Positions 1,736 to 16,001 of a stretch of 19,284 bases of DNA are shown piece by piece. Location of the stretch: the NCBI GenBank assembly GCA_027577415.1, contig JANBQS010000384.1:1-19284 (forward strand). The letters run 5' to 3'. Under the pieces are notes generated by a model. The model saw only the letters and a list, made by a program, of their open reading frames with translations. It did no database searches and had not been told where the DNA came from. Each line of letters starts with the position of its first letter. The first letter of the stretch is position 1. The translations under genes and the position numbers were made by a program. The DNA is from Coemansia sp. RSA 922 (taxonomy: Eukaryota; Kickxellomycota; Kickxellomycetes; Kickxellales; Kickxellaceae).

Positions 1736-3730
1736 TTAAATTGCAGCCAAAACCAAGGTGCTCATTATTGACAGCAAGTCGCGGGTCAAGGCTACTGCGT
1801 CACCTCCAACGCCTGCGCAATTGTCCACGTCGAGCAATTGTAGTCTCCACACTCGCTTTGCGTGCTGGCTATTACGTTGGCGGCGATATCGGGCTGAGCA
1901 AGCAGCAGCGAAATCTCGAACAGCAGCGCCAGTAACGTCTGTGGCGTCGAGCACTAAGACCTCGATACCAGAGGCATCAGAAGTATTAACTGACTCCGTT
2001 AGCTGGTTCAGTACATAGTTATCGGCAGCAGTTTGGCTAAGGTTCACATGGGTCAATCTAGGACAGCAAGATACCAGGGCCAGCAGCGCCTGCGGAGGGA
2101 CACCCACGCATCCGCTAAGATCGAGCGAGACTAGTAGCAGCGACACAGGCATAGGGCCCACGGCCAACACCTGAGCGTCCAAGGCGGTTGCGCGAGTCAA
2201 GTGAAGCTGCTGCAGCGAAGAGAGATTTTGGCTGAAAAGGGATTGCATCTGATCGTGGCTGGCAGCAGACGAATCCAAAGCAGAGAAGCGCCGCAAATTG
2301 CACGAAAACAAACGACAGGCCCCCAGCAAGGTCGACAGCCGCGTACTCTCAAAGCGATGAGCTGACAGGGTCGTGTCCCAAAGGCCGTCGATATTCAGCT
2401 CGCGCAAGTCGGGAAAGGGCGCCTGCGTGATTTGCATCTGCCTAAAGTAACCAAGCAAGGGCCCCAGGTTCTTAACCATGGCAAACACTGCTTGGTCGCG
2501 GATGGCGGCATGCAGCACTCGTAGCTTGGCAAAGTGTCGGAGCTTGGAGCTGTAGATTAAAAGCTCGGCAATTCCTGGGTGGTCGTTGATGATTAGCTCT
2601 TCGATTCCAGTTGACGCGTCCACCAGTACCGAGTTCCATGCCACGAACAGCCGCTTCATGCTCACTCGAATGCAGCCCGATATATCCAGCGCCCGGAGCT
2701 TGTGGCCCAGCTTGGCAATGACTTTAATCTCCTCGTCTCCAACCTGCACGCAGTAGGGGAGCCGGATATCAGTAACCATGGCAGGCAAGCACCAGCTCAG
2801 GATGCGGTAAATCGATTCTGATTTTAGCGCAGAGGCTCGGCCAAAGGCTATCTGCGCTAGGTTGGGCCGCCGGCATGCGAGCAGTGCCTTCAAGACCTTG
2901 GCAGACACTGCAAGCCCGTCTGGGACGGTAGCAACTACTAGGCTTCCTTGCGACTTTTCAAACACTCGCTGAACAACAGCATCAGGAGGTGCCCGATAAG
3001 CCCTTTGCTGCATTCGCTTTTGTGCTTTCGAGTACCCAGGCAGCTGCCGTGCCAGCGTGCGCGCAGGACTCTCTACGAGATAGCACGGCTTGCTCCATAT
3101 AACTGGCGTGTTGTCTATTAAATTTAGCCAGCGCGTCGACACGCTGCGACATATATAGAGCATGCGCGTATCCAGCAGCCGCATTATCATTACAACTAGG
3201 TCTGTGGGTAAGCGTCTAATCGGGTCAAAGTCGCTTTCAAACTCAAGCTCGTATGTTGGGTCCAGGCGTAAGGAGAGCGAGCTATGTAACAGCTGCAGGT
3301 CCTTGTAGTCAGGGGCGCTTCTGTCTACTTGGCTAAGGCCTCGCTCGACTACCTCCAAAGCCACTTTGGGCCTGCCTGAATCATCCAGAATGCTCGCCAT
3401 GCAAATGTAGCCTGCGGACGAATGGGCATTGATGCGAATTGCCTCCTTTGCGTCGGATAGCGCACGCGTAAACTCGCGCAGCTTGTATAGAGTATGTGCC
3501 CGCGCCTCATAGAGCTTTGCATCTCTGATACCCTCGTTGCCGGCAAGCGCAACGGCGCGGTTGTAGTAGTCGAGCGCATTTCGATACTGTCGCTCGCGAA
3601 AGTTCTCTCGGCCAAGCACATACCATCGGTGTACTTCAGCCAGGGGAGCAGATGTCGATAGAGTGCGATGCGATGTGGAGGCCTGGTTGGGCTCTGCCGC
3701 TTGCTTGCGCTTTCGACCAGCAACAAACAT
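1736..3730 (-). CDS. TPR–F-box–LRR protein, Dia2/Pof3-like SCF ubiquitin-ligase subunit
   Basis: A 664-residue protein with the domain order that defines the fungal Dia2/Pof3 family. A basic GRKRKQ near residue 5 may be a nuclear signal. TPR-like helices span about 33-155 (AEVHRWYVLGRENFRERQYR; YEARAHTLYKLREFTRALSD). An F-box follows at about 172-215 (RRLPTDLVVMIMRLLDTRML...STRWLNLI), then leucine-rich repeats from about 290 to the end (LRALDISGCIRV; LVSLDLSGCVGV; LTHVNLSQTAADN). In yeast, Dia2 binds the replisome through its TPRs, contacting Mrc1 and Ctf4, and ubiquitylates the CMG helicase at termination. An in-frame ATG at 3778 would add 16 strongly hydrophobic residues; I prefer 3730 for a nuclear protein. 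The RecQ gene ends only 65 bp upstream, on the same strand. Confidence 0.75.
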   Translation of the reverse strand: MFVAGRKRKQAAEPNQASTSHRTLSTSAPLAEVHRWYVLGRENFRERQYRNALDYYNRAVALAGNEGIRDAKLYEARAHTLYKLREFTRALSDAKEAIRINAHSSAGYICMASILDDSGRPKVALEVVERGLSQVDRSAPDYKDLQLLHSSLSLRLDPTYELEFESDFDPIRRLPTDLVVMIMRLLDTRMLYICRSVSTRWLNLIDNTPVIWSKPCYLVESPARTLARQLPGYSKAQKRMQQRAYRAPPDAVVQRVFEKSQGSLVVATVPDGLAVSAKVLKALLACRRPNLAQIAFGRASALKSESIYRILSWCLPAMVTDIRLPYCVQVGDEEIKVIAKLGHKLRALDISGCIRVSMKRLFVAWNSVLVDASTGIEELIINDHPGIAELLIYSSKLRHFAKLRVLHAAIRDQAVFAMVKNLGPLLGYFRQMQITQAPFPDLRELNIDGLWDTTLSAHRFESTRLSTLLGACRLFSCNLRRFSALDSSAASHDQMQSLFSQNLSSLQQLHLTRATALDAQVLAVGPMPVSLLLVSLDLSGCVGVPPQALLALVSCCPRLTHVNLSQTAADNYVLNQLTESVNTSDASGIEVLVLDATDVTGAAVRDFAAACSARYRRQRNSQHAKRVWRLQLLDVDNCAGVGGDAVALTRDLLSIMSTLVLAAI

Positions 3731-3795
3731 GAGTGAAATTGGAAATATAATTAGCAAATGAGCAAGAAAGAGAAGCATAGACGCGTCAGCAACAG

Positions 3796-6700
3796 CTATG
3801 GCCGGCTGCCACGCATCAGCATGGGCTTGATCGCTGTCGTAGCACGATTACTGCTTTTAGTATTTCTACCACCAAAGTGTGTAGACGTGTCTCGAGTAAA
3901 TACGGCCTGGGTTGTGACAGCGCCGTGTGATGCGCCAGACGCACTAGCAGACGTTTTCGACGACGACGACGCCTTAGTGGTGCTTGTCTGCTTTGTCACA
4001 CGTGGAGCTCGAGCAGGCTTGTCAGATTGCGCTGTCTTCTTTAGCCTTGGATCCGTTAGCTGCAGCGACACTCGTAGCTGGCCATGGCTGACTCGATTTG
4101 CAGCGGGTCCCAGCCGAACATACGTGCACACATACCCTGCCGCATTGTTCTCGCAGTACTCGTCGAGCACCTGGCGCAGCACCAAGTGCTGACATAGACG
4201 ATCCGCATCGCCCCTAGTCAGCGCCTTGCCCAGGCCGTACGCAGACAAGACGTTGTCGCCCCGATCCATGATGCGCTTGGATTTTGAGCCCCTGAAGATG
4301 TCCGTCAACTGCAAGAGCGTGGTCTTCTGGCCCTGAGCCACTAGCGCCTGGACCGTCTCGATCAGTGCGCAAGCCTCGCGCATCATGTCGGTCTCTACCA
4401 ATGGCGTCTGGCTCCGCTTGCGGCAGTTGTCACACGTCTTTTGGCACTTTGCCACGTCGAATTGCTCGCCAAAGTAAGACAGAACCAATTGCCGCCTGCA
4501 GTCGGTGATGTTTTCGCAGAACTGGACTACTTGCCGCAGCTGCTGCCGCTGCCGCTCCTTGACATCCCAGTCTCCCTCGCCGCGGTCTATCATAAAGTCA
4601 ACAGAGGACTTGTCGCGGAAGGAATAGAACAAGACGCAGACCGCCGCCTTGCCGTCTCGACCTGCACGACCAGTCTCTTGGTAGTAGCCCTCAAGCGAGT
4701 TGGGCAGCGAGTGGTGAATGACAAAACGCACGTCAGCCTTGTCAATACCCATGCCAAAGGCGACGGTGGCTACAATCACCTGTAGCTCGTTGTGCTGCCA
4801 CGCCCGCTGCACGCGAGTTCGGTCCTCCTTGTCCAGCCCCGCGTGGTAGTGCTCGGCCCGCAAGCCGTAGCGAGAGCGCAGGTCGTGAGCCATCACTTCG
4901 CAGTTCTTTTTGCTCGTGCAGTAGATGATGCCAGACTCGCCAGGGTGTCGGGACGTGATCAGCGCGTGGATGTCGGCCGAGATCGAGGACGTCTTTGGTC
5001 GGATCTCATAAAACAGGTTAGGTCGATTAAAGGACGACGTCGTAGTCACGCACCCGTGGATGTACAGGTGGTTAATAATATCCAGGCGCACTTTGGCGTT
5101 GGCCGTCGCTGTCAGCGCCATAAATGGAACGTTTGGGTACAGCTTGTGAAAGTTTCCGATTTGCGTATAGTCGGGCCGAAAGTCATGACCCCACTGTGAC
5201 AGACAATGTGCCTCGTCCACTACAAAGCGCGCTAGCTGGCCGCGCTTGTGCAAGCGATCGATGGCATCCTTTGCCTGGCTGCTCTTGTTGAGCATCTCGG
5301 GCGTAACATACAAGAGCCGTAGTCGGGGCTCAGGCTCGTCAATCTCGCGAAAGACCTGTGCGCGACGATCGGCTGGCATGGTTCCCGTCAAAGACAGTGC
5401 CGCAACTCCCCAGCCGACGAGATGCTCGATCTGGTCTTGCATCAGCGACAGCAGAGGAGACACTACGACAGTCACGCCACGAGTATTGCCCTTTTGCACT
5501 ATTGCTGGCAGCTGGAAGCACAGGCTCTTGCCTCCTCCGGTCGGCATAAGCACAAACACGTCCTTTCCCTGCAACGTCGCATTGATGGCCTCGAGCTGCC
5601 GAGATCGGAATTCCTTCATCTTGAACACCTGCCGAAGCGCCTTGTACACGTCCTTGGTCCAGTGGTAGTTGACTTGCTGTTGGTTAGGATCAGGATCGGA
5701 GGGCTTTACGATTTCGGCATTTGTCGCTGGTTGATACGCGGCCATACTCCTGTCGGCTACATTGCGCGCAGCAAGTGTAGGTTGGCGGACAGGCTCGTTA
5801 GCCCACAAGGCGTTTCCGTCATTACTCAAAGCGTGCGAGCCATATGACGTGTCCACCGACGGCTGCACAGCCTGGACTGTCCGACTAGAGCTGTTTCTCG
5901 GGGAGTCTGCTGGTGGTAGCACGCTCAAAGAGACCATGCTCTTCAGACGATTTATCTCATTGATAACGATCGCACGATCTTGCTTACAGAGAGAGATGTC
6001 ATTGTCGTTGGCAATTTCGTTTGCAAACTCCAGATCACATATCTCATCGCTGATATTGGCCTTCCTAATGGCGAGCTGCGTCAGTCGCTCCTCTACACTC
6101 AGCGAGTCGTAGTTTGCTATTTTAAACGTCGCGGCAGCATCGACGGGTTTGGGCTCAGCAGCAGTCTCCTATGCATCGATAAATATGCAGCGGCAAGAAA
6201 TGGAACATACACGGCGTTAGAGCGAGTTCGCCTTGGTATCAGTTGGGCAATAGATGACAGCATATAACCTACCTTTTGGGGCAAAACAAACGCGACATCA
6301 TCACCTTCGATGAGAAGCAGGTCGTCGTGGTCACTGTCGATCGCTCCGTAGTACGACTCGACTTCATCTAGGTAGAAGCCGTGGACATCGTCGGCGATGC
6401 TCGGATTGGGGCTTGCTGATATTGAGCGTGCGTTGCTTCTAGAGACCCTGGCACGCTTTTGGGCCGGAGACTGTCCGCGCATATACCCACTTCGCTTTGG
6501 GCTGACCGTAGTGGCGGTGGCCGAGCAACTGAAGTCGACAGAGTCGTCAAAGTCCTGCGCGTCAATGACCTCCAGATCACCCTCAAAATCAGAACACAGA
6601 TCGATTGCCATGTCGCTGTTGTTGATGCTGGTCTCGGATGGCACCTTGACAACTCCACTGATGCCTGGAAAGTCATCGAAATCACTCAAGTCGTAGGCGT

Positions 6701-12892: not shown

Positions 12893-13203
12893 ATGTGCGT
12901 ATTAAAAAAGAAAGAGAATAAATAAAAGAGAAAAATTTTGCTTTCATAGCTGGATAAAAACAGAGACAGACAGACACTGATGCAGATATCAGAGAAATGG
13001 GGGAAGGGTGAGTGTAGGATGTCGCCTGATGGTGAGAGACTTGAGAAAAAAAAGTACTCTCCTTGCATACCATGCTATGAATAGTATTTCTCAAGATTTG
13101 AATATCTATTTCAGGATCATGGATATATGCACTGGGATGCCACACTATTTGTTTTGCAAGGCGAGAACTTTTTCAAAAATTAAACATCTATTTCAGGAAC
13201 ACC
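12893..13203. other. 311-bp intergenic region between LRR-like and TatD genes
   Basis: Both flanking genes are on the minus strand, so this holds the TatD 3' UTR and the promoter of the LRR-like gene. Directly upstream of the LRR-like ATG the minus strand is pyrimidine-rich (about 12905-12945) without a convincing TATA box. The TatD side contains a 13-bp direct repeat. No gene is seen. Confidence 0.5.
13104..13198. repeat. Pair of direct repeats ATCTATTTCAGGA
   Basis: ATCTATTTCAGGA occurs at 13104-13116 and again at 13186-13198, 82 bp apart, with loosely similar AT-rich sequence before each copy. Both lie just past the TatD stop codon. On the plus strand each looks like a splice acceptor (TTTCAG), but no plus-strand gene is visible there. 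They may be 3' UTR elements of the TatD transcript or remnants of a small duplication. Confidence 0.6.
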
Positions 13204-13992
13204 TTATTTTGCAAAGAAGGCTTGGGCATTTTCAGCCAGTTGGCGACAAGCATCATCCAGCGACCAGCCATGTGCCTCTGATACCATGCCGATTGCCTGG
13301 TCAAGTGCCAGCGCCGCCGTACTCGCGTCATGGAGGTCGGACTCGACCAACACTCGGCTATGTGGCATGACTCGGATGCACTGCAATGTCTTTTGCAGAT
13401 TCCGCCCGTTGACTAGGCGCGAGTAGCTGGCGTACACGCGCGCGCCCAGCTCGCCTCGCAGAAAGAGTTGCTGCAACATATCGGGTGACCCGCTATACGA
13501 GTGAAGCATGATGCGCGGTGGCAGGGTGCCTGCTGCCTCTGCCTCTCGCAGCACGTCAGCCAGCGCCCCAAATGCCCGCACGCAGTGCACTGAGACGGGG
13601 ACGTCCAACTCGTGCGCAATGGCCAGCTGGGCCTTGAGGAGAGCTATTTGTGGCTCGAATGGGTACAGCTGGCCCGTGGCGGGGTTTCGTGCAGCCTTGT
13701 CGAGCCCACACTCCCCCACAATTCCGCCGTATTTTGTGACAAGAAGCTTGAGCTCACTACGCCACGTCTCGGGGATCTCGCCAGACTCGACCTGCTCGAC
13801 AAACCAGGGATGCAGGCCAAACGCAGGGACTATTCTGTCGCCATACTCCTCTTTGAGCCGTGCTACGCTGCCCCAGTCTGAGTATCGCGTCGCCTGCACG
13901 CAGTAGGCGATATGCTTGTTGCTGCTGCTGTCAAGCACGCCAAGCGTTGCCGGCGTCTCGTGGATGTGACAGTGGACGTCAAACGTGCTCAT
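13204..13992 (-). CDS. TatD-family metal-dependent hydrolase (Scn1-like)
   Basis: A 262-residue amidohydrolase-fold protein of the TatD family, whose members are metal-dependent phosphoesterases/nucleases or orphan hydrolases. The metal ligands expected for the family are all visible: H7 and H9 in DVHCHIHE, E94 in GIVGECGLD, H136 in VSVHC, H164 in MLHSYSG, and D219 in LVESD. FGLHPWF (59-64) is also typical. The length fits the usual 260-300 residues. Among fungal members it most resembles the fission yeast Scn1 (Cut9-interacting) group, judged from the HPWF and ECGLD context, so a role in DNA degradation should not be assumed. The start is the ATG at 13992, directly before the motif-bearing first strand. 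No frameshift is seen. Confidence 0.85.
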   Translation of the reverse strand: MSTFDVHCHIHETPATLGVLDSSSNKHIAYCVQATRYSDWGSVARLKEEYGDRIVPAFGLHPWFVEQVESGEIPETWRSELKLLVTKYGGIVGECGLDKAARNPATGQLYPFEPQIALLKAQLAIAHELDVPVSVHCVRAFGALADVLREAEAAGTLPPRIMLHSYSGSPDMLQQLFLRGELGARVYASYSRLVNGRNLQKTLQCIRVMPHSRVLVESDLHDASTAALALDQAIGMVSEAHGWSLDDACRQLAENAQAFFAK

Positions 13993-14439: not shown

Positions 14440-14958
14440 ATGCCTGCTACTTTCACCCTCTTCAATAAAGGCGCATTTTCACAACGTGCGCTAGTATTTG
14501 ATCGCGACTTTAAGAACCGGTCGGAAGCACTAGAAAACGCGGAACCACTGTACCTAGTAAACACCAAATGGAGCACCGTCGAGATACTGCACAACACAGT
14601 AACAGGCCCGAAAGCCCTACTGTCAGGGAACTATAAAGGATGGTTGAAACGCTCTGTCTCGCTCAATGGGTTTGGCTCGAATACACTGGCCAAGCGCACA
14701 GCGGTCGTAAGGTCGGGGTGGTCGTTTGTCGACTTTACGAGCAATGAGTTTACTTGGCGTGTGTCTGGCTGGAGCACGTCGTGGACGCTGACTGACGTCA
14801 ACGGGTCGGTCGTAGCCAAGTTGACTCGTGCGACTCTCCACAGAAACAAGCTCGGGACCTTGGAGATTATGGAGGACGTACCTGAATCTCTGCTGGCCCT
14901 GATCCTTGTAACCTGCAAGCTTGTGCACCAGACCGTTGTGGATGGCGAACGAAGCTAG
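14440..14958 (+). CDS. LURP-one-related / tubby C-terminal-like domain protein
   Basis: A 172-residue protein with the look of a single LURP-one/tubby-like beta barrel. The strands are rich in Trp and aromatic residues and match the pattern of those folds: an opening FSQRALVFDRDFKNRSEALE, then LVNTKWSTVEILHN, a central KRTAVVRSGWSFVDFTSNEF, WRVSGWSTSWTLTDVNGSVVAKL, and a closing hydrophobic helix PESLLALILVTCKLVHQTVV. In tubby and scramblase relatives the final helix threads the barrel. Such proteins bind membranes or lipids in some families; the fungal single-domain members have no assigned role. The start is the first ATG after a pyrimidine-rich leader. Confidence in the fold is moderate, because it rests on pattern alone. 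Confidence 0.65.
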   Translation: MPATFTLFNKGAFSQRALVFDRDFKNRSEALENAEPLYLVNTKWSTVEILHNTVTGPKALLSGNYKGWLKRSVSLNGFGSNTLAKRTAVVRSGWSFVDFTSNEFTWRVSGWSTSWTLTDVNGSVVAKLTRATLHRNKLGTLEIMEDVPESLLALILVTCKLVHQTVVDGERS

Positions 14959-15086: not shown

Positions 15087-16001
15087 ATGTCCCGGTCCGT
15101 GCTGTCGCTGCGCCTACCCGCCTACTTGCAGACCAAACTCATTCAGAATGGCTATCACACGGTAGCTGACTTTGACGAGACCCCGCTGGCCGAAGACTTG
15201 GCGCAGTTCCTTACACAGCCAGAGGTGCGCAGCTTGGCATCGGCAGCTCAGGCGCAGCCATCCGCCCACTCTGCATGGTCCATACAGCAGCAAGCCCTGA
15301 CGCGGAGCTACTTTTCGACACAGCTCGGCCAGCTGGATGCCCTGCTGGGAGGACGCGGCATCCCTCTAGGCTGTATCACAGAGGTTATTGGTGACGCAGG
15401 GAGCGGGCAAACTGAACTCTGCCTCCGCCTATGCCTTTCTGCCCGCCTGCCTGCTACTCAGGGCGGTCTTGGTGTTAATTCGGTGTATATTGACACTGTA
15501 GGCTCGTTCTCATACTGTGGAGCTGCACGAGCCGCCCATCGCCTGAGCGCGCTGCCATCTACACTAGCAACGAGTCTCCTTGACAGCATCCATGTATTTC
15601 GGGTATACGCGGCACACGAGTTAATGGCGCTGTTTTGCTCCTTTGACCAGATCGCTAGCCACATTGCTGGAGTTGGGCTGGTGGTGGTCAACACCGTGAG
15701 CTGGCCGTTTCTGGCCTCGTTCGCAAGCAACATTGCCCGCCGACAAGCGTTACACGCAGAGCTGTCACGTATGCTGTCGCAAGTCGCAACAAAGCACAAG
15801 GTTGCCATCGTATTAGTCAGCCAGGCGAAATCGCCCTTTGGCCGCTCCAACTTGCTCACTTCGTCGTCGATGGACGGCGACGTGTGGGCACGAGTAGCCG
15901 CCAACCGTATTTCGCTTCAGCGCCACTCCAATGGCTTCGATATTGCCTTGAGCGCATCGACCATGCATCCAACTGGCGAGGCCTTTGTCAGCGACCTCTA
16001 A
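15087..16001 (+). CDS. RAD51C-like RecA-family paralog with degenerate ATPase motifs
   Basis: A 304-residue RecA/RAD51-family protein. An N-terminal helical part (1-60; LPAYLQTKLIQNGYHTVADF is the HhH-like start) precedes the core. LDALLGGRGIPLGCITEVIG (84-102), YIDTVGSF (134-141), GLVVVNTVSWPF (197-208), a long helix, and AIVLVSQ (240-246) align best with RAD51C, particularly the aromatic-proline-Phe after Walker B. Three key ATPase positions are altered. Walker A reads GDAGSGQT with Gln108 (codon CAA) in place of Lys. The DTEG glutamate is Val138 (GTA). The Walker B aspartate is Asn202 (AAC). The frame is intact, so decay of a dead gene is unlikely. Start: ATG at 15087; the frame further up has only TTG. 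Paralogs of this class act in RAD51 filament assembly. Confidence 0.8.
   Translation: MSRSVLSLRLPAYLQTKLIQNGYHTVADFDETPLAEDLAQFLTQPEVRSLASAAQAQPSAHSAWSIQQQALTRSYFSTQLGQLDALLGGRGIPLGCITEVIGDAGSGQTELCLRLCLSARLPATQGGLGVNSVYIDTVGSFSYCGAARAAHRLSALPSTLATSLLDSIHVFRVYAAHELMALFCSFDQIASHIAGVGLVVVNTVSWPFLASFASNIARRQALHAELSRMLSQVATKHKVAIVLVSQAKSPFGRSNLLTSSSMDGDVWARVAANRISLQRHSNGFDIALSASTMHPTGEAFVSDL

What the first reader, a model, noticed from the sequence alone, without database searches (positions are those of the whole stretch)
15087..16001. RAD51C-like paralog that has lost all three core ATPase residues
Walker A reads GDAGSGQT (Gln108 for the invariant Lys), the catalytic Glu of the DTEG motif is Val138, and the Walker B Asp is Asn202. 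All three are visible in an otherwise intact 304-codon frame with clear RAD51C-type motifs. Human and plant RAD51C need these residues; losing all of them while keeping the frame open suggests a pseudo-ATPase kept as a structural subunit of a RAD51-paralog complex.
Basis: partly seen in the sequence, partly recalled or inferred. Interest (0 to 1): 0.75.

Follow-up and report, generated by a model that had tools for sequence, protein, structure and literature searches.

The report
RAD51C that lost its ATPase site
Fungi related to Coemansia keep a DNA-repair protein that looks like RAD51C although its ATP-using residues are gone, which suggests that there it works as a structural spacer rather than as an engine.

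Summary
The window is from a Coemansia-like (Kickxellales) genome. The 304-aa frame at 15087-16001 is a RAD51-family protein closest to RAD51C, with Gln108, Val138 and Asn202 where human RAD51C has K131, E161 and D242. It is no sequencing error: in 28 Kickxellales-type rows, window included, Lys is present in 0 of 25 readable rows, Glu in 0 of 27, Asp in 1 of 26; 112 of 112 listed RAD51C rows from elsewhere keep all three (a capped list). The trans-acting "lysine finger" is gone too (0 of 17). New here: the same genome encodes a RAD51D-like protein with an eroded P-loop under purifying selection (dN/dS 0.12), XRCC3-like and XRCC2-like proteins with intact nucleotide motifs, and no detected RAD51B. 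In humans RAD51C hydrolysis depends on RAD51B and is idle in the XRCC3-RAD51C-RAD51D-XRCC2 cap (PMC7618403). Best reading: in Kickxellales that cap keeps ATP sites only at its two ends; RAD51C, and perhaps RAD51D, became spacers. Untested: nucleotide binding, the complex, dN/dS of RAD51C. Trees do not settle which paralog it is; profile scores and elimination favour RAD51C.

The parts
15087..16001 (+). RAD51C-like gene, one open frame, 304 aa plus stop
   Evidence: same start in P0002
15273..15275 (+). Ala63, linker alanine at the place of the alanine of the polymerisation motif (that identification is my own column count); Ala in 17 of 17 full-length Kickxellales-type rows and 108 of 112 other rows
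15390..15413 (+). former Walker A (residues 102-109, GDAGSGQT; Gln108 at the lysine position)
   Evidence: column entropy
15492..15509 (+). DTVGSF (residues 136-141); Val138 at the catalytic glutamate position
15678..15695 (+). former Walker B strand (residues 198-203); Asn202 at the aspartate position
15738..15740 (+). Arg218, at the place of human RAD51C R258 (contacts ssDNA); Arg in 14 of 17 full-length rows
   Evidence: role from PMC7618403
15954..15956 (+). Ala290, at the place of the trans-acting lysine finger K328 of human RAD51C; Lys in 0 of 17 full-length rows (the end of one of them, P0014, is an odd gene model)
   Evidence: role from PMC7614784
16209..17201 (+). glutathione-transferase-family gene (glutathionyl-hydroquinone reductase by database name of relatives); in two other Coemansia records a gene model runs from the RAD51C gene into it
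   Evidence: Pfam GST; P0024, P0025

Best explanation
The gene encodes the Kickxellales RAD51C, kept as a catalytically dead and most likely nucleotide-free structural subunit of an XRCC3-RAD51C-RAD51D-XRCC2-type cap on RAD51 filaments. Shown here: the three ATPase residues and the lysine finger are missing in the relatives seen; the fold (by prediction), the linker alanine and one DNA-contacting arginine are mostly kept; the genome has XRCC3-like and XRCC2-like proteins with intact nucleotide-binding motifs, a RAD51D-like protein with an eroded P-loop, and no detected RAD51B. Inferred: RAD51B was lost, which in humans is the subunit that switches on RAD51C's ATPase; with no activator the RAD51C site became idle and decayed, and the neighbouring nucleotide site of RAD51D with it, leaving ATP only at the RAD51-facing end (XRCC3) and the cap end (XRCC2). 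The protein then works by holding XRCC3 and RAD51D-XRCC2 together through its linker and RecA-like core and by touching ssDNA.
For: K 0 of 25, E 0 of 27, D 1 of 26 readable Kickxellales-type rows, against 112 of 112 other RAD51C rows with all three. In P0016, P0017, P0019 and P0022 the P-loop is gone beyond the lysine, and P0046 has lost its first glycine and the threonine. The columns of G102, A104, G105, G107, Q108, T109 and V138 move from invariant in the 112 rows to the 25th-66th percentile of variability in 17 full-length rows, while D136, G139 and F141 stay invariant (N202 is at the 14th percentile). Lysine finger: 0 of 17 full-length rows against 105 of 112 others. Annotated relatives of nearly full length at 42-50% identity, where in a neutral simulation 0 of 300 frames stayed open at 50% and 0 of 300 at 45%. 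Structure model mean pLDDT 92.1, best Foldseek hit RAD51C in the human XRCC3-RAD51C-RAD51D-XRCC2 complex, 9zzr_C. Genome inventory: RAD51 on two contigs; XRCC3-like P0028 with GESASGKT, STEG, IVDS; RAD51D-like P0142 with AKEARVAT where human RAD51D has GGPGSGKT and with the Walker B Asp kept; XRCC2-like on two contigs with GLAGSGKT and LVLD; a RAD51B query finds only the RAD51, XRCC3-like and RAD51C-like places. RAD51D-like haplotype pair dN/dS 0.118, XRCC2-like pair 0.126. Human XRCC3 complex: RAD51C E161A has no effect on ATPase, the RAD51B lysine finger K324 is what couples RAD51C, XRCC3 lacks one (PMC7618403, parts 1 and 2 of 5 read).
Against: No experiment. The trees leave the paralog assignment open and in their best form do not group these rows with the other RAD51C rows: one RAD51C group in 4% and 6% of 200 bootstrap trees, and the other RAD51C rows go with XRCC3, RAD51B and RAD51D (92/77) to the exclusion of the Kickxellales-type rows. 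Held together with the other RAD51C rows the likelihood falls by only 0.94 (p-AU 0.377), with XRCC3 by 1.25 (0.202), with RAD51B by 4.28 (0.141), with RAD51D by 4.09 (0.168). ATP binding is said to be essential for complex formation among human paralogs, and the analog sits between RAD51C and XRCC3 (PMC10366140, passages), so a nucleotide-free subunit would need another way to hold on. Xenopus tropicalis lacks RAD51B (PMC7618403), yet its RAD51C row P0062 keeps K, E and D, so loss of RAD51B does not by itself bring decay. Gln108 is the same in 20 of 25 rows and the last P-loop glycine is kept in 14 of 17, which would fit a residual or altered nucleotide function. R249 is kept in 0 of 17 (Leu in 15), so DNA contact may be altered. 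DNA of the relatives was not seen, so annotated introns could hide stops. RAD51D of other Kickxellales was not looked at. RAD51B absence rests on one fragmented assembly (960 contigs).
Confidence: 0.58

Rival explanations
1. The protein is catalytically dead but still holds a nucleotide: the P-loop with Gln in place of Lys binds ADP or ATP weakly and the bound nucleotide glues the XRCC3-RAD51C interface, as a nucleotide does in human RAD51C.
For: Gln at the lysine position in 20 of 25 readable rows; in 17 full-length rows G105 and G107 are kept in 14 each and Thr109 in 11. In the human XRCC3 complex RAD51C sits with ADP and does not turn it over (PMC7618403).
Against: P0016, P0017, P0019 and P0022 have lost the loop and P0046 part of it, and all keep much of the rest of the protein; Asn replaces the Walker B Asp in 25 of 26 rows.
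Confidence: 0.22
2. It is not RAD51C by descent but another paralog (a decayed RAD51B, or a lineage-specific copy) that took over RAD51C's place.
For: The best trees do not group it with the other RAD51C rows, the AU tests do not reject grouping with XRCC3, RAD51B or RAD51D, and the branch is long, 2.3-2.8 changes per column.
Against: The profile of 23 rows scores best with RAD51C, 121 bits, then RadA 99, RAD51 85, XRCC3 82, RAD51B 78, RAD51D 70 (a six-copy RecA fusion reaches 120 in sum), and its match to human RAD51C starts at residue 1, human residue 10. Separate XRCC3-like, RAD51D-like and XRCC2-like proteins exist in the genome.
Confidence: 0.15
3. A pseudogene or a gene under relaxed selection on its way out.
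For: Fast evolution, loss of catalytic residues, several truncated or oddly spliced gene models among relatives (P0014, P0018, P0021, P0025, P0026). Its own dN/dS is not known.
Against: Nearly full-length relatives at 42-50% identity against 0 of 300 open frames in neutral simulations; 15 invariant and 27 nearly invariant columns in 23 rows, some of them partial. The odd models look like annotation errors because other records of the genus hold the skipped stretch.
Confidence: 0.03
4. Sequencing or assembly error at the three codons.
For: None found.
Against: Records from other Coemansia, Kickxella and Martensiomyces show the same or equivalent residues wherever they are readable (the Martensiomyces row lacks the Walker A part; one row, P0016, has Asp at the Walker B place).
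Confidence: 0.01

Closest known systems
RAD51C of animals (human RAD51C, FANCO)
   Same: RecA-like core, N-terminal domain, linker alanine, DTxGSF motif, R258 position, best profile and Foldseek match
   Different: No Walker A Lys, no catalytic Glu, Asn for the Walker B Asp, no lysine finger, R249 replaced by Leu
XRCC3-RAD51C-RAD51D-XRCC2 filament cap (PMC7618403)
   Same: The genome encodes a likely counterpart of each of the four subunits and no detected RAD51B; in the human complex RAD51C hydrolysis is idle as well
   Different: Human RAD51C and RAD51D both hold a nucleotide (ADP and ATP); here both P-loops are damaged. Complex formation untested
Other RAD51-family proteins that lost ATPase motifs (yeast Psy3 and Csm2, worm RIP-1; recalled, not from a call)
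   Same: Non-enzymatic members kept as partners
   Different: Those are divergent small paralogs; here it is the hub paralog RAD51C itself, in the relatives seen across Kickxellales

Membership tests
RAD51/RecA-like recombinase superfamily (Pfam Rad51) | Match over the curated cut-off | tested here: met
   PF08423 74.7 bits, cut-off 22
RAD51/RecA-like recombinase superfamily (Pfam Rad51) | N-terminal helical domain plus RecA-like core | tested here: met
RAD51C | Closest to RAD51C by sequence profile | tested here: met
   121 bits against 99 or less for any chain of another family except fusions of several RecA copies, up to 120 in sum
RAD51C | Groups with RAD51C in a tree | tested here: inconclusive
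   Not grouped in the best trees, one group in 4% and 6% of bootstrap trees; not rejected, p-AU 0.377, smallest likelihood cost of five placements; RAD51 rejected, p-AU 0.005
RAD51C | Functional Walker A, catalytic Glu and Walker B Asp | tested here: not met
   Gln108, Val138, Asn202. So the protein is filed as a RAD51C-like pseudo-ATPase, not as a RAD51C ATPase
RAD51C | Trans-acting lysine finger (human K328) | tested here: not met
   Ala290; Lys in 0 of 17 full-length rows
XRCC3-RAD51C-RAD51D-XRCC2 complex | All four subunits encoded | tested here: met
   XRCC3-like, RAD51D-like, XRCC2-like (best match XRCC2 at E 2e-8), this protein; each by best PDB match, fused RecA chains set aside
XRCC3-RAD51C-RAD51D-XRCC2 complex | Subunits assemble and cap RAD51 filaments | not testable with these tools
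   Only monomers can be predicted

The most novel reading that the evidence does not exclude
In Kickxellales the loss of RAD51B freed the middle of the RAD51-paralog cap from ATP: RAD51C and RAD51D became nucleotide-free spacers between two nucleotide-binding ends (XRCC3 facing RAD51, XRCC2 at the cap), and the lysine fingers went or stayed with the sites that they serve: RAD51C's finger is gone with RAD51D's site, a KS motif near RAD51D's end stays with XRCC2's site. The order would be a natural experiment that separates the scaffold role of RAD51C from its ATPase role.
Probability: 0.4. Interest if true: 0.75.

Novelty: new variant of a known kind. Interest (0 to 1): 0.62.

Why it matters
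What the ATP sites of the RAD51 paralogs are for is an open question with medical weight (RAD51C and RAD51D are cancer genes). Fungi that keep RAD51C without its ATP site, with a RAD51D whose site is broken too, would show which of these sites a working cap can do without, and would test the idea that RAD51C's ATPase serves only the RAD51B complex.

Tried and rejected
Sequencing error: rejected by the relatives. Pseudogene: unlikely by lengths of relatives and conserved columns. A second intact RAD51C in the assembly: searched with the window protein, with Pfam Rad51 and with an annelid RAD51C; besides the window copy only RAD51, XRCC3-like and RAD51D-like places. RAD51B: the human sequence found only the RAD51, XRCC3-like and RAD51C-like places. 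A second haplotype of the window's gene for dN/dS: a 92% identical contig end (C803) covers window 13000-13521 and stops before the gene, so no DNA pair for RAD51C; dN/dS was done for RAD51D-like, XRCC2-like and RAD51 (786 bases of RAD51 compared, 18 synonymous and 0 non-synonymous differences). Fungal RAD51C outside Kickxellales: the third and last protein search listed 120 of 756 hits, 8 of them Kickxellales-type, 87 named animals and 25 of unnamed source, so the trees hold no row known to be such; the trees do not resolve the paralogs. By VIA-align the best rows are DMC1 and RAD51 chains, with RAD51C chains about 1 Z lower, so that comparison does not single out RAD51C. Folding the RAD51D-like protein alone gave pLDDT 34.8, of no use, and was not searched further. 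The MAFFT pair alignment of the RAD51D-like protein puts human K297 on Val350, not on the nearby KS motif at 353; that its lysine finger is kept is a motif reading, not an alignment result. Three of the 13 differences between the two RAD51D-like haplotype proteins fall in residues 127-137, around the former P-loop (Fisher p 0.005, the stretch chosen after seeing the data). Papers: RAD51C with Coemansia (0 papers), RAD51 paralog with pseudo-ATPase, RAD51 paralog with Walker A and degenerate, RAD51 paralogs with evolution, Walker, lost, fungi, RAD51C, RAD51D with K113R, Kickxellomycotina with homologous recombination; of the listed papers only titles and abstract starts were seen, none on this. 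Two broader searches (15 of 23 listed, 10 of 2,007 listed) gave the papers cited. So nothing found in the held library describes it; subscription journals are mostly not held.

Full report
What is there. The frame 15087-16001 (+) encodes 304 aa in one open frame. Pfam Rad51 matches at E 8.7e-21. The window lies in a 20.4-Mb assembly of 960 contigs, and its nearest database relative is a protein of Coemansia sp. RSA 2673, 99% identical. The further named relatives are from Coemansia, Kickxella and Martensiomyces, all Kickxellaceae, order Kickxellales. P0009 comes from an unnamed source.

The three residues. Gln108, Val138 and Asn202 stand at human K131, E161 and D242 (human numbering from passages of PMC7614784). 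In 28 Kickxellales-type rows, window included, Lys is present in 0 of 25 readable rows, Glu in 0 of 27, Asp in 1 of 26 (P0016, C. guatemalensis); 112 of 112 other RAD51C rows (87 named animals, 25 of unnamed source) have all three. Those 112 are what was shown of a list cut at 120 of 756, found with a query that held an annelid RAD51C, so they lean towards intact motifs. In P0016, P0017, P0019 and P0022 the P-loop is gone beyond the lysine; P0046 has lost its first glycine and the threonine. The lysine finger, which in human RAD51C reaches into the RAD51D site, is Lys in 0 of 17 full-length rows and in 105 of 112 others. The P-loop columns and V138 go from invariant in the 112 rows to the 25th-66th percentile of variability in the 17, while D136, G139 and F141 stay invariant.

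It looks like a kept gene. Relatives of nearly full length exist at 42-50% identity, where 0 of 300 neutrally evolved copies of the window gene stayed open; at 80% identity 13 of 300 did. The relatives' DNA was not seen, so introns in their models could hide stops. The linker alanine is kept in 17 of 17 full-length rows; the DNA-contacting arginine R258 in 14 of 17, R249 in 0 of 17. In two other Coemansia records a gene model runs from this gene into the same glutathione-transferase-family neighbour. The model is confident (pLDDT 92.1; 41 of its 61 rows were canonical RAD51C, which helps the fold along) and its best Foldseek hit is human RAD51C in the XRCC3-RAD51C-RAD51D-XRCC2 complex; by VIA-align DMC1 and RAD51 chains lead and RAD51C chains lie about 1 Z lower.

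Which paralog. By profile RAD51C leads: 121 bits against 99 for RadA, 85 for RAD51, 82 for XRCC3, 78 for RAD51B, 70 for RAD51D; fusions of several RecA copies reach 120 in sum. Trees do not settle it. In their best form the Kickxellales-type rows do not group with the other RAD51C rows (one group in 4% and 6% of 200 bootstrap trees). Held together, RAD51C costs least (0.94 log units, p-AU 0.377); XRCC3, RAD51B and RAD51D are not rejected; RAD51 is (p-AU 0.005). XRCC3-like, RAD51D-like and XRCC2-like proteins exist separately in the genome, which leaves RAD51C or RAD51B.

The partners. PF08423 finds RAD51 on two contigs, an XRCC3-like protein with intact motifs and the window gene. The XRCC3-like protein groups with annelid XRCC3 (99/96; PDB hits XRCC3 and RAD57). 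A fourth place, found at E 0.087, is RAD51D-like: its best PDB match is human RAD51D at E 1e-12 against 2e-6 for XRCC3. Its P-loop is AKEARVAT where human RAD51D has GGPGSGKT; the Walker B Asp is kept. It occurs in two versions on two contigs, 36 synonymous and 14 non-synonymous differences, dN/dS 0.118. An XRCC2-like protein, also on two contigs, keeps GSGKT and the Walker B Asp (best PDB match XRCC2 at E 2e-8; dN/dS 0.126). No RAD51B was found.

How it most likely works. In human BCDX2 the RAD51B lysine finger drives RAD51C's ATPase (PMC7614784 passages; PMC7618403 parts 1 and 2 of 5). In the XRCC3 complex RAD51C is idle, its glutamate mutation has no effect on ATPase activity, and the little activity left is XRCC3's. 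A fungus without RAD51B would have only that second complex. There RAD51C's catalytic residues carry little load, and their loss is understandable; what remains is the hub that joins XRCC3 to RAD51D-XRCC2 and touches DNA. This is inference. Human RAD51C and RAD51D still hold nucleotides in that complex, ATP binding is said to be essential for human paralogs to form complexes (PMC10366140 passages), and ATP binding by RAD51C is needed for fork protection in mammalian cells (PMC4787763 passages); so the Kickxellales case would be a further step, not a copy. Against a simple rule stands Xenopus tropicalis, which lacks RAD51B (PMC7618403) and keeps K, E and D in RAD51C (row P0062).

Limits. Nucleotide binding and the complex are untested; no DNA pair for RAD51C was available, so its own dN/dS is open; RAD51D of other Kickxellales and RAD51C of other early fungi were out of reach after the three protein searches; the assembly is fragmented. 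Novelty is judged on the held library only.

Noticed in passing
L013:1204-2313 (G000:C87) and L025 (G000:C372): RAD51D-like protein with eroded P-loop in two versions, 356 of 369 residues identical, under purifying selection (dN/dS 0.118).
   Followed up: partly
G000: C325/C603, C418/C714, C87/C372, C384/C803: Three of the five RAD51-family genes examined lie on two contigs that differ by about 7-14% at synonymous sites, and part of the window by 8% from another contig end: the assembly seems to hold two diverged haplotypes or two strains.
   Followed up: no
window 1736-3778 (-) and 3796-5937 (-): A TPR plus F-box protein (domain order recalled from the Dia2/Pof3 genome-stability proteins) next to a RecQ helicase, about 9 kb from the RAD51C gene; whether this nearness means anything was not examined.
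   Followed up: no
P0014, P0018, P0021, P0025, P0026: Public gene models of Kickxellales RAD51C that skip or scramble stretches around or behind the Walker B strand, or (P0025) fuse the gene with its neighbour; they look like annotation errors.
   Followed up: partly
window 14440-14958 (+): Gene with a weak DUF6593 match below the cut-off; two other places in the genome (C20, C44) are 65% identical in DNA.
   Followed up: no
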